This document shows positions 17,181 to 33,855 of a DNA stretch of 64,000 nt, piece after piece. Numbering within the stretch: position 1 is the stretch's first letter; each line of letters opens with the position of its first letter. The DNA is from Branchiostoma floridae. Taxonomy: Eukaryota; Chordata; Leptocardii; Amphioxiformes; Branchiostomatidae. The stretch lies in the NCBI RefSeq assembly GCF_000003815.2, contig NC_049982.1, positions 19,338,496-19,402,495 on the forward strand, read 5' to 3'. The position numbers and the translations under genes were made by a program. Below the pieces are notes generated by a model. The model was not told the DNA's origin, did no database searches, and worked only from the letters and a program-made list of their open reading frames with translations.

Positions 17181-20100
17181 TTAGAATGTCTTGCGGTGGA
17201 TCGCTCGGGCCCCGTCTTCGTCATACTCCTTCTTGGACACCCACATCTTCTTGAAGGTGTCCAGGGAGGCCAATATAGAGCCCCTGGGAAGTAGTAAAGT
17301 GTAAAGAACATAATAAGTGTTGATGAAAAGGTCTGAGATGAATCGTAAATTCAGTTGACAGAACTGGGTAGTAATGTACATGTCATAATTCTGCTTTACA
17401 ACTCATGTATGTATCAAAGACTGCAGTGTACAAATACTAAATCTGTACATGTACGTGTCCTAATTCTGCTTTACAACTTATGTATGTAACTAGAGTTCGG
17501 CGACCTCATACCTCCATGAAAATTTAGAGCTTTCGTAAATTTCATGCAATTGACTAACACATTAACATAATTTATGCATGGTGTTGTTCATCATTGACTA
17601 ACGTACACATGTCACAATTATAAAATTCCCATCATCAATCATAAAGCAGTTTTGAATTTTTTTCATAAATTATGCAAATAAGTTTCTCATTACCATATTT
17701 GGTATCTGCTTATATTCCACCCATCATAATTAACATGTGTTACATTTATTGAAGTCCAGTTATTAAAAACAATTGAATTATACAATTTCCTCATTAATTA
17801 TGCAAATTAAGCTCTCATTTGCATAACATGTATATTATTATGAACATCTTTGCCTAAGGTACCCGCATGCCTAATATGATGCCAATCCGTCAATCCTTTC
17901 TGCAGTTATCCTCTTTGGAATGTCTTGACAAAAATGCCCCTGCAGTTCCAAAATTGACTGTTAGGGGACTGAAACTTGCCCCACTTTGTCATGACACTGA
18001 AAGCTATCTACCACCAAAATGTCAAGACCATAGCATATCTGGAACAAGAGATACATTGAAAAAACTGATAGGATAGAATATCCTCATTAATTATGTTAAG
18101 TTACTCCTATTTTGCATAATCTGTATTTCATCCTGTACAACATTGTCTAAGGTACCTATACACCAAAAATCATGAAAATCCGTTGTCCCCTTCTTGAGTT
18201 ATCCTCTTCAGAAGTTTTTGACAGAAATGCCCCTGCTATCCCAGAACTAGCCGCTAGGGGGCCCAAACTTATGTCACTTCTTCCTGAGCACAAGAGCTGT
18301 CTAACACGCAAAAATCGTGACCATAGCATGTTCAGAACACCGTCCGAGATAGCAAAACCAGAAGTTGCGCTGCAGTACCAAGGGGAGTCGCTAGGGGGCC
18401 AAAAATCTAATCATTTCCAGCTTTCATCACACACTACCAACACACCAAGTATGAAACCAATCCACCCAACCGTTCTTGAGTTATCTTGTTTACACACACA
18501 CACACAGACACACACACACACAAACGCAGGGTAAAATATAACCTCCATGACATTTCATGGAGGTAACAAAGACTGCAATGTACAAATATAGAACATTATC
18601 TTAGTTCTTACCCTATCCACGTGGAATACAACCTCTCCTGTGGTGCAGAAATCTGGAGTGGACAAAGTATGAAAGTAAGACCATGTTCACATCAATGAAC
18701 AAGTGACAAAAATACAGTAACTTCAGTATGAGCTCAAAGGTCACCACTCACCCTAATCTTGACATCCTTTGGTGCTAGTTTCTTGACCTCACTAAGTAGT
18801 CTGTCTCCAAAACCTAAAGGGAAAGTAAAATTGCATTGATAAAGAGAATGGACACTTACATACTTTACCAGAGAGTAGGAATGAGATTCTGCCTACCCAG
18901 TCTTCAGAATACAATCAAACAAAACTACATAGATGTTCTGTAAATTCTTTCAAGTCCTTTTATTATATGGAATTGTTTGTGCAATCCTAAGTTAAAAGTG
19001 AGTATATGAGGTGATATCAAATCGTTGTCCTAATCTAGACTGCTCAAGGACAGTCAAACAGGTTGCTGTCCTAGTTTGTGGCCATAGTTAAAACATCAGA
19101 AAACACTGACACACATATTCAGTTGCAAACTTTGTGGCAACTGCTAGGGGGCATGAGTGTCCAACAACAGAAAACGTACCTTTAAATAACGTGGATCCTC
19201 CCGACAGTACGATGTTGGTGTAGAGTGTTCTCCTCAGGTCCATGTCTGACTTGTGTATGGAGAAGGCCAGCACCTCATGCAGACCCTCACACTCCTCCCC
19301 TATCAGGTCTGGTCTGAACAGCAGCTCAGGAGCACGGAAACGTGCTGGTCCAACCTGCAACATGGCACAGAAGGTTCCAGTTTGGAATTTGTTTTACCTT
19401 ACCAAAAAATAGTCCTTGAAAATATGACACAAACCCTTCGTTTTGGCTCCCAATTTTTTAGCTACCGCTATAGCAGTGCATAATCTTTGATGTTTCCTGA
19501 AAATAAACTATTTTGGGGTGAAAATTTTAGATTATTAATGTTTTACCAACTGAGCCTAACGGTCAGTGACAAGGCACATCTTTCTATCGGAAACACTGGA
19601 TTGTCCGAATAACGATGATTTGAGATGCGCTAGCGCTTTTCTGAGAGACAGTCAAATCAGCCTTGAACCGTAAAAATACTCCAGACCAGTACAAACAGTC
19701 CCTACCTATCATGTTATGGATTGTTTATAATGCCCAAGTCTAATCAGCAATGACATTGGAAGAATTTAAGAGAACTAAAAGTGATGTTGTACTCAATTGG
19801 TGTACATTTACCATCTTAAACAAATTTGCATTTCAGTGTTGACTTGAGTATGATTAACATGAATGTTTATCTTTGACCTACATACCTGAAGCTGTCTGCA
19901 AAAAAATTTTAAAATGGTTTAAAAAATCTGTTATGGGCTTTTAATAATCTCCATAACAGATATCGACACCTGACACAATAGATATATCACACNNNNNNNN
20001 NNNNNNNNNNNNNNNNNNNNNNNNNNNNNNNNNNNNNNNNNNNNNNNNNNNNNNNNNNNNNNNNNNNNNNNNNNNNNNNNNNNNNNNNNNNNACCTATCA

Positions 20101-31500: not shown

Positions 31501-33855
31501 GTGACTATCTACCTTCCCAGAATGCATCAAAACACATCCAACAATTCACACCCCAGATGGCTTACTGTGGCCCACAATCATATGGATTTCTTATGTTACC
31601 TTTCAAAATACAGCATCTAGTATAATATTATCAGTATATTTTTAAATTCTTGAATTGTCAACAGACTCAATTAGTCCATGAGAACGTCTTGATCTTTGTT
31701 ACTTGCCTACAACTTTATAAATTGTGTGATAAACATTGATGCAACATTCAGGTCAAAAATTGTTCCCAAACTTCACCAAATAGCAGTGTTTTTCTCAAAA
31801 CAGCATTAATTGATGATGCTATACTACTTGCGCATCGGAAAAACATAGAAGCACTAAAAAGCACTCATGGAAAAGTAAAGAAAATGATATTTGTCGACAA
31901 TTATTACAAAAACAATATATCAAATATCATTTTCTTTACTTTCCCATGAGTGCTTTTTGGTGCATTTGTGTTTTTCTGATGCGCAAGTGGTATGATATCA
32001 TCAATCAATAGTATTATCAGAGAAACACTGCTGTTTGGTGAAGTTTGGGAACAATTTTTGACATGAATCTTTGCATTAATGTTTATCACACAATTTATTA
32101 AGTGTTGTACAAAAGTAACAAAAATCGACATTCTCATGGACCATTTGAGTCTGTTGACAATTAAAGAAAATAAAGATTTGCTGATAATATTATACTAGAT
32201 GCTGTATTTTGAAAGGTAACATAAGAAATCCATATGATTGTGGGCCACAGTAAGCCATCTGGGGTGTGTATTGTTGGATGTGTATTGATGCATTCTGGGA
32301 AGGTAGATAGGCACCACCTGCACCCCTACTGAAGGTTGTACTGAAGGAACTACAAGGAAGGGTATGAGCTCTATTTACAACAAGTTCTTTTTCCCCAAGG
32401 ATCCAGTATACGTGTTACCTATAACTTTCCTTTACTACAGAATCTGAGCAAATCAAGGCCGAGCTGCGGAGGGGGCTGATGGGACAGCATGGATCAGGAG
32501 CTGCTGGGTTTGGGACCGGGGCAGGTGCTGACTTCACTGATCATGTCAACCACAACACTGACAGGTATGGGGCTGTTTGGTACAAGAAGAATGTCATTGT
32601 ACAAGACATGAAAAGTATACTAGCTTTATCAACAAGTCATCTATAATATTGCTGAATGTTGTGTACATTATGAGACAAATGAATTGACTGTTTAAATGAC
32701 TTGCTGTTTGTAGAGAGAGAAAAGACTCCCTGAGCAGTTCAGGCAGTACAGAAGAGGTGAAGCCAGGCGAGCTACAGAGGAGCCAGACCATGGATGCTGT
32801 ACATATCAAAATTAACAAGGAGGCTGGGACTCTACTGCCACTAGTCATGAGGTAAGGACAGTGTGTCTGTGAACTAGCAAAACTGTCTGTTACATCCTGG
32901 TGATGCTATAGTTTTCTGCCATGTAAAAGTTGCAATGGTATGTGGAATACTCATGCCTGTATATATGTTCAGGGGGAGATTGAAACACGGACGCCACTTC
33001 ACGTTCAAGGATGTGTCGGGGAATTCAGCAATAACGTTTGTGTCACCGAGAGTCATGGGAGCCATAGCAGACGAAAGTCATCCTTATGCCTCTAGAGGGC
33101 CATGGTTACAGGTAAGCTGAATGCAAGAACCTCTTGAATATCCTAGAATTTTGTATTTTGTAGCTAACAGCTTCTTCACTCTTTTTGCTGTCATTGCTTT
33201 TACAAAGAATATTGTTCTTAGTTACTACAAGTACTGTGGCAGTAGGGCACTAGATGAATTTCTGGCATTGTTTCTATTACTGTATACAATTTTAATTGAA
33301 TATCAAAATACTTAAAGGTGAAGTAGCTTATGTAGAAAGCAGCAAGTAAAATGAATATTATTGAAGTAATGTATTAACATATTTGATTCTATAGGTTCTT
33401 ATACCGGAAGATTTTCTAGAAGCTGTCATAAAAGACTTGGAGGAGCTGTCCAGCACTGAGGAAGTAAGACTCTTTGCAACTTTGTAATCTTATGTTTTAA
33501 TGATATGGCTTAGCTTCCAACATGAAAATTCCTCAACATGAAAAGTGTAATTGACATTATGCCTGTCTAAGTCTTGTTTGGAAAAATTGCCTTAGATTTA
33601 TTGTGATTTTTATGTAATGGATAACTAAAAAATTGTTCTCAAAGGGATAAAGATGGTACCTTTGACAGTTTGAGAAGCAAGTGTGTCTTTGATTTTATTG
33701 CTATAAGACATGATATTCAGCTGTGTAGCATCTCTGTGCACGCGTAACTTACATGTATGTCATCTGTGTATTGTGTTCCCCAGCTTGTGGTGCCAAAGCA
33801 GTACAGATGGAGGGAGAAGGGGTTGACCATTAGTATCCTACCTGATGACTGGTGA
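25514..33855 (+). CDS. SUFU: Suppressor of fused, complete 12-exon gene
   Basis: SUFU binds GLI transcription factors and holds them in the cytoplasm or in repressor form until Hedgehog signalling releases them. Coding exons: 25514-25725, 28259-28393, 28808-28944, 29495-29637, 29918-30003, 30238-30310, 30820-30961, 32441-32564, 32714-32851, 32973-33111, 33395-33463, 33784-33855. All introns are GT-AG, phases agree, and the product is 489 residues, against 484 in human, which also has 12 exons. The N-terminal domain includes YADQPNPLQVTAVVKYW, GGPDPLDYISMY, HWHYVSFGLSDLYGD, GPSGFGFELT and GDHVSWH. After GGPWLLTDMRRGETIFE comes the C-terminal part with SNLSGVSAKCSW, an acidic linker, an RKDSL stretch like the phosphorylated region of vertebrate Sufu, RGRLKHGRHF and HPYASRGPWLQ. 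The N-terminus is rich in proline, histidine and methionine. The in-frame sequence before 25514 lacks another ATG. Confidence 0.97.
29220..29319. other. Assembly gap (100 N)
   Basis: A 100-base N run in SUFU intron 3. Exons 3 and 4 join in frame, so no coding sequence seems lost. Confidence 0.95.
30803..30819 (+). repeat. (TG)7 tract forming the SUFU exon 7 splice acceptor
   Basis: Seven TG units run directly into TAG, and exon 7 starts at 30820. The usual pyrimidine tract is replaced by alternating TG, with only CTTGTTT upstream. Confidence 0.85.
31034..31493. repeat. MITE-like element in SUFU intron 7
   Basis: A 15-base terminal repeat, TAGGGGTGGGTACCA, stands at 31034-31048 and inverted at 31479-31493. 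The interior has blocks of GGACC-type sequence and no coding capacity. TAGGGGTG ends are common in hAT-type elements, so that class is the best guess. Its right end touches the large palindrome that follows. Confidence 0.6.
31495..32320. repeat. 826-base near-perfect palindrome (foldback element) in SUFU intron 7
   Basis: Two arms of about 400 bases are reverse complements with scattered mismatches; the turn is near 31908. Paired landmarks are CTATCTACCTTCCCAGAATG at about 31505 against CATTCTGGGAAGGTAGATAG at about 32290, and GATATTTG at the centre. The ends read CAAGTGGTG and, inverted, CAGGTGGTG. CACCCCTAC occurs directly before (31486-31494) and directly after (32321-32329), a probable 9-base target duplication. 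Long arms with a 9-base duplication suggest a Mutator-like or foldback element; an 8-base hAT-type duplication is the alternative. Confidence 0.85.

What the first reader, a model, noticed from the sequence alone, without database searches (positions are those of the whole stretch)
17181..33855. Ancient head-to-head ACTR1-SUFU pair with a shared 1-kb promoter
Complete ACTR1 (minus) and SUFU (plus) start 1026 bases apart. Human ACTR1A and SUFU at 10q24 are also divergent neighbours with about 1 kb between them. Retention of the same orientation and spacing since the chordate ancestor suggests a bidirectional promoter under constraint, tying a dynein cofactor to a Hedgehog regulator. Both products act in cilium-related transport, which makes co-regulation plausible but unproven.
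Basis: partly seen in the sequence, partly recalled or inferred. Interest (0 to 1): 0.7.

Follow-up and report, generated by a model that had tools for sequence, protein, structure and literature searches.

The report
Conserved back-to-back ACTR1–SUFU gene pair
In what is most likely an amphioxus genome, the genes for a dynein cofactor (ACTR1) and a Hedgehog-pathway brake (SUFU) start about 1 kb apart and point away from each other, as they do in humans; it looks like one more case of an already described class of old back-to-back gene pairs, and whether the two genes are controlled together is unproven.

Summary
Observation confirmed. ACTR1 (minus, 24487→17181, 13 coding exons, 376 aa, 337/376 identical to human ACTR1A) and SUFU (plus, 25514→33855) diverge with 1,026 bp between start codons. 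A human paper places one active promoter, in nine of nine cell types, at the 5' ends of both genes. Among genes I could name within 100 kb on either side, none is a recognised 10q24 neighbour; many stretches stayed unnamed.

Interpretation partly supported. Such pairs are common in amphioxus: 25% of neighbouring genes, 372 putatively ancestral. Human data in the passages I read lean towards separate control. A single shared promoter, sequence constraint and a ciliary reason stay untested; no other deuterostome or Branchiostoma genome was available.

Leads from motif scans (26 patterns tried): a perfect GLI consensus about 300 bp upstream of SUFU's ATG (one of two in 245 kb), a full CRE near ACTR1, a YY1-like motif over SUFU's ATG, and one outward-facing TATAAA per gene. 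They fit either two separate core promoters or a compact bidirectional one, and possible Hedgehog feedback on SUFU; none is shown.

The parts
17181..24487 (-). ACTR1 (Arp1, alpha-centractin) gene, ATG to stop; 13 coding exons: 24440-24487, 23453-23517, 23220-23295, 22930-22968, 22335-22421, 21809-21871, 21427-21488, 20516-20732, 20145-20237, 19180-19354, 18752-18813, 18612-18652, 17184-17283
   Evidence: spliced alignment, 376 aa, 337/376 identical to human ACTR1A, TAA at the end
25514..33855 (+). SUFU gene, ATG to stop; exons 25514-25725, 28259-28393, 28808-28944, 29495-29637, 29918-30003, 30238-30310, 30820-30936, a linker exon near 32441-32564 (ends unresolved), 32714-32851, 32973-33111, 33395-33463, 33784-33855
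   Evidence: the only match to the SUFU domain family in the own genome, found through one of its exons
24488..25513 (.). 1,026-bp intergenic region between the two start codons, presumed to hold both promoters; GC-richer at both gene ends, AT-richer between
   Evidence: no significant second copy within the 264 kb held
24588..24595 (.). perfect palindromic CRE (TGACGTCA), 101 bp upstream of the ACTR1 ATG
   Evidence: 10 exact matches in 245,362 non-N bases, this one included, so about 0.04 expected in 1,026 bp
25210..25218 (-). perfect GLI/Ci consensus GACCACCCA (plus strand TGGGTGGTC), about 300 bp upstream of the SUFU ATG
   Evidence: 2 exact matches in 245,362 non-N bases, this one included, so about 0.008 expected; consensus as given in the abstract of PMC2830928 (search listing)
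25509..25517 (+). YY1-like CCAAGATGG over the SUFU start codon (may be only a Kozak context)
   Evidence: 6 exact matches in 245,362 non-N bases
25184..25189 (+). TATAAA facing SUFU; chance match or an alternative core promoter
   Evidence: 2 TATAAA in the gap, 0.82 expected
24929..24934 (-). TATAAA facing ACTR1; chance match or an alternative core promoter
   Evidence: 2 TATAAA in the gap, 0.82 expected

Best explanation
An old head-to-head gene pair whose roughly 1-kb gap most likely carries two back-to-back core promoters of broadly expressed genes, sharing one stretch of open chromatin and some proximal elements. I favour starts near each ATG (ACTR1 by the CRE, SUFU by the YY1-like motif); starts at the two TATAAA boxes, about 0.3 kb apart, are possible. 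The pair has stayed together since at least the last common ancestor of amphioxus and vertebrates because a break or insertion in so short a region would take proximal elements from one gene or the other, not because the two proteins must be made in step. Shown: gene structures, orientation and spacing here; an active promoter at both 5' ends in human by paper. Inferred: core promoters and their places, shared chromatin, the reason for retention.
For: Divergent genes 1,026 bp apart. One active promoter in nine of nine human cell types at both 5' ends. In B. lanceolatum 3,950 of 15,884 neighbouring genes sit in bidirectional promoters, most common among ubiquitous promoters and enriched for housekeeping functions; 372 are putatively ancestral. 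Head-to-head pairs are kept better than tail-to-tail pairs in chicken (PMC2423431, passages). GC is higher at both gene ends (0.52 at 24400-24599; 0.56-0.65 in the windows from 25400 to 25699) than between them (0.31-0.43), as expected of two separate core promoters. Flanking genes that could be named (GH63 glucosidase, M20 peptidase, NOX-like, GH1 array, helicase, OATP, sugar-transporter-like) are not the human neighbours TMEM180, TRIM8 or ARL3 named. A 5'-nucleotidase gene of the NT5C2 family lies on the same contig 5.7 Mb away, with others on C12 and C9.
Against: No TSS, ATAC or expression data for this animal. No CCAAT (2.53 expected), Sp1, NRF1 or ETS site in the gap, although these are usual in bidirectional promoters (recalled). 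Two outward-facing TATAAA boxes (0.82 expected) speak against TATA-less promoters at the ATGs. Human eQTL and deletion data point to largely separate control. The island claim is soft: part of the flank reads N, most coding-like stretches were not named, families of the human neighbours were not searched for successfully, and an MFS-type gene in the right flank was not compared with TMEM180/MFSD13A.
Confidence: 0.55

Rival explanations
1. Functional co-regulation: a true bidirectional promoter keeps ACTR1 (dynein-dynactin transport) and SUFU (GLI control, often at the cilium) in balance, and selection on that balance holds the pair together.
For: Conserved divergent pairs are more often functionally related than poorly conserved ones (PMC2871058, abstract and passages). 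EP300 knockdown in human cells lowered both SUFU and ACTR1A. The two TATAAA boxes would allow a compact bidirectional core.
Against: EP300 knockdown also lowered TMEM180 and ARL3; the SUFU intronic element affected ACTR1A in one of two cell lines; the CD4+ T-cell eQTL was for ACTR1A. The same gene-order paper found only 8.5% of 924 human divergent pairs functionally related by its score.
Confidence: 0.12
2. Passive retention: the target between the genes is only about 1 kb, so the pair survives by chance with no constraint on the intergenic sequence.
For: Local order around the pair seems reshuffled, so some pairs should survive by luck; [quoted passage not shown]
Against: Head-to-head pairs are kept better than equally close tail-to-tail pairs in chicken, which passive retention does not predict.
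Confidence: 0.28
3. The genes are adjacent but the human and amphioxus arrangements arose independently.
For: Only two lineages are compared; no shared motif was demonstrated.
Against: Same two genes, same orientation, similar spacing. My rough estimate for a given neighbour pair to be adjacent and divergent in both by chance is near 0.001 (inference, no call).
Confidence: 0.05

Closest known systems
Ancestral bidirectional promoters of chordates (Marlétaz et al. 2018, PMC6292497; passages)
   Same: Amphioxus head-to-head pair that is also head-to-head in a vertebrate.
   Different: SUFU has 0 occurrences in the main text; whether this pair is among the 372 would be in supplementary files that I could not read. 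The gap here is at the long end.
Human ACTR1A-SUFU promoter region at 10q24.32 (PMC9624411; passages)
   Same: Same two genes, 5' ends together, one active promoter state at both.
   Different: Treated there as a leprosy risk locus; conservation or a bidirectional promoter is not discussed in the passages read.
Vertebrate bidirectional promoters as defined by Yang, Taylor and Elnitski 2008 (PMC2423431; passages)
   Same: Divergent orientation and short spacing kept over long times.
   Different: Definition needs TSSs at most 1,000 bp apart; TSSs are unknown here.

Membership tests
Head-to-head (divergent) gene pair | two adjacent protein-coding genes on opposite strands with their 5' ends facing | tested here: met
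Bidirectional promoter | TSSs no more than 1,000 bp apart | tested here: inconclusive
   start codons are 1,026 bp apart, so two 5' UTRs totalling about 26 bp or more would meet it; no TSS data
Bidirectional promoter | one open region driving both genes, correlated expression | not testable with these tools
   no ATAC, CAGE or RNA data for the window
Ancestral chordate head-to-head pair | same pair and orientation in amphioxus and a vertebrate | tested here: met
   window and human by paper; that the window is amphioxus is inferred, not tested
Ancestral chordate head-to-head pair | presence in other deuterostomes (sea urchin, hemichordate, lamprey, gar) | not testable with these tools
   no other animal genome was offered by the tools used
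Ancestral chordate head-to-head pair | constraint on the intergenic sequence: conserved blocks across Branchiostoma species | not testable with these tools
   no second Branchiostoma genome; the whole-genome self-search of the region did not complete
GLI target gene | consensus GLI site near the promoter | tested here: met
   25210-25218, one of two exact sites in 245,362 bases
GLI target gene | GLI binding and Hedgehog response of the gene | not testable with these tools
   needs binding or reporter data

The most novel reading that the evidence does not exclude
The ACTR1-SUFU intergenic region is an old shared regulatory block in which a GLI site makes SUFU (and perhaps ACTR1 with it) respond to Hedgehog signalling, a built-in negative feedback on the pathway. 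The pairing may be older than chordates: from memory, Drosophila Arp1 (Arp87C) and Su(fu) both map to cytological region 87C, which would put it in the bilaterian ancestor and before any ciliary link.
Probability: 0.1. Interest if true: 0.6.

Novelty: new member of a known kind. Interest (0 to 1): 0.33.

Why it matters
If the pair is held together by its promoter region, control of a dynein cofactor gene is linked to that of a core Hedgehog regulator, and human variants in this promoter (one is in a leprosy credible set) would have to be read for both genes. The GLI site gives a simple, testable feedback hypothesis for SUFU. As a case of old gene order it is one of a few hundred of a described kind.

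Tried and rejected
Larger conserved block with 10q24: not seen, but weakly tested. Of 198 non-overlapping coding-like stretches in window and flanks, ten gene groups were assembled and nine proteins were sent to Pfam, seven of them shortened (the dermatopontin-like group was not sent); eight of nine had a match, the adhesion-GPCR-like one had none. The rest stayed unnamed, and part of the flank reads N (245,362 of 264,000 bases known).

Repeat-derived intergenic region: no significant second copy within 264 kb (best other match E 0.22); only short repeats inside; no Rfam match over 16500-34500. The whole-genome search for copies did not complete.

Motifs typical of bidirectional promoters: 26 patterns were scanned against 200 first-order random versions (three patterns are the same GLI site). 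13 of 26 had no hit in the gap. CRE and GLI stand out; AP1 (1, 0.14 expected), a TCT-type initiator pattern (3, 0.81 expected) and TATAAA (2, 0.82 expected) less so. With this many patterns all are leads only.

Drosophila adjacency: searches (0 papers; 1, unrelated by title; 25 of 135 listed; none on the pair by title, none opened) gave nothing; the 1995 paper was not held. The Drosophila positions are recalled.

Prior report of the pair: searches (20 of 23 listed; 14 of 14; 2 of 2) show no title or abstract start describing ACTR1A-SUFU as a conserved pair; of the papers holding both names I read passages of three (PMC10115178, PMC9624411, PMC11974182). Supplements could not be read; PMC3514665 is not held. 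For PMC2670823 six terms, ACTR and SUFU among them, had no occurrence.

Human neighbour families SFXN2, NFKB2 and ARL3 (PF03820, PF00554, PF00025) could not be placed: not completed (30, 42, 67; 43). TRIM8 and MFSD13A were not searched for.

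Full report
What is there. A spliced alignment of the window to the human proteins recovers a complete ACTR1 gene on the minus strand (ATG at 24487, TAA ending at 17181, 13 coding exons, 376 aa, 337 of 376 residues identical to human ACTR1A) and a SUFU gene on the plus strand (ATG at 25514, TGA ending at 33855). The stated gap is right: 1,026 bases lie between the start codons. SUFU's first seven exons read 301 codons without a stop and its last four exons read in one frame to the stop; the linker between was not resolved. SUFU gives the only match to its Pfam family in the genome, but the search found just one of its exons, so a diverged second copy could be missed. 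The window lies on a 34-Mb contig of a 513-Mb genome. That size fits Branchiostoma floridae, by recollection; the species was not tested.

Human side. [quoted passage not shown] This supports the head-to-head arrangement in human. The exact human spacing is recalled only, about 1.2 kb between TSSs, just over the usual 1,000-bp limit; divergent genes with a bidirectional promoter and a longer gap are known (PMC2871058, passages).

Surroundings. I fetched 100 kb on either side, part of which reads N, and found 198 coding-like stretches. Nine proteins were tried against Pfam and eight had a match: an N-terminal and a C-terminal GH63 part (MOGS-like), a NOX-like oxidase, an M20 peptidase, a GH1 enzyme directly beyond SUFU, a helicase, an OATP and a sugar-transporter-like gene. 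None is a recognised relative of the human neighbours TMEM180, TRIM8 and ARL3 (named), but these were not searched for specifically and the MFS-type gene was not compared with TMEM180. A 5'-nucleotidase gene of the NT5C2 family, the best match of three places in the genome (C4, C12, C9), is on the same contig 5.7 Mb away; in human NT5C2 falls in the same 2-Mb deletion as ACTR1A and SUFU (PMC11974182, passages). I did not show which of the three is the NT5C2 orthologue. The picture is consistent with kept chromosome membership, reshuffled local order and a surviving pair.

Is it a shared promoter? The gap is 41% GC; GC is higher at both gene ends and lower between. CCAAT (2.53 expected), Sp1, NRF1 and ETS sites are absent. 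A full CRE lies 101 bp upstream of the ACTR1 ATG, a YY1-like CCAAGATGG over the SUFU ATG and a perfect GLI consensus about 300 bp upstream of the SUFU ATG. In the 245,362 known bases of window and flanks the exact counts, these sites included, are 10, 6 and 2, so expectations for 1,026 bp are about 0.04, 0.03 and 0.008. Twenty-six patterns were tried, so these are leads. Amphioxus ubiquitous promoters are analysed with YY1 motifs in PMC6292497 (figure legends), which fits a SUFU start near its ATG; the starts would then be 0.9-1.0 kb apart, longer than the 0-2 nucleosome spacing described there. Against this stands one TATAAA facing each gene, at 25184 (plus) and 24929 (minus), two found for 0.82 expected; if used, the starts would be some 0.3 kb apart, a compact bidirectional promoter. 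I lean to two core promoters near the ATGs because of the GC pattern, but the sequence alone does not decide.

Co-regulation. Human passages speak mostly for separate control: the eQTL at the leprosy locus colocalises with ACTR1A in CD4+ T cells and with TMEM180 in skin and nerve; deleting a 379-bp stretch of SUFU intron 11 lowered SUFU and TRIM8 in two cell lines, ACTR1A and TMEM180 in only one, and ARL3 in neither; EP300 knockdown lowered SUFU, ACTR1A, TMEM180 and ARL3 but not TRIM8 (PMC10115178, passages, 12 of 26 places shown). The ciliary argument was not tested.

How new. Marlétaz et al. 2018 (passages) reported that 25% (3,950 of 15,884) of neighbouring amphioxus genes are in bidirectional promoters, fewer in mouse (12.83%) and zebrafish (7.84%), and followed 372 putatively ancestral ones. 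The present pair is most likely one more case of this class, possibly on that list. Searches listed no paper whose title or abstract start describes the pair as conserved; supplements were not readable. For the GLI site I made one search (12 of 166 listed): none of the 12 holds 'SUFU promoter', and since papers with both terms are listed first, none holds both.

Verdict. Observation confirmed; interpretation partly supported; a known kind of feature with interesting gene content and one cheap, testable hypothesis.

Noticed in passing
L015 2670-3539 and window 11598-13466: N-terminal (GH63N) and C-terminal (GH63) parts of a MOGS-like glucosidase lie on the same strand about 48 kb apart, with M20-peptidase-like exons, transposon-like frames and an unknown stretch between them; one gene split by an assembly error, or two genes.
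   Followed up: partly
L012 near 7088 and L015 near 4887; L013 near 8756 and L016 near 6033: Dermatopontin-like (by eye) and M20-peptidase-like exons occur twice, about 27-28 kb apart, with nearly identical translations; a recent tandem duplication or an uncollapsed haplotype.
   Followed up: no
window 36210-63815 and on into L019-L020: Array of GH1 (lactase/klotho-like) genes on the minus strand directly beyond SUFU, many similar copies (one fragment confirmed by Pfam).
   Followed up: no
window 3-3554, 37616-42100, 54123-55065: Long open frames that look by eye like LINE-type endonuclease or reverse transcriptase genes.
   Followed up: no
window 24503-24520 and 25180-25197: Imperfect 18-nt inverted repeat (78%) within the intergenic region; probably chance.
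   Followed up: no
L024 about 1193-9722 and L025 about 2315-7360: Adhesion-GPCR-like exons (no Pfam match for the piece sent) and a helicase with HA2 domains that recalls DQX1/DHX32; with MOGS they recall human 2p13/10q paralogous regions (recalled, not tested).
   Followed up: no
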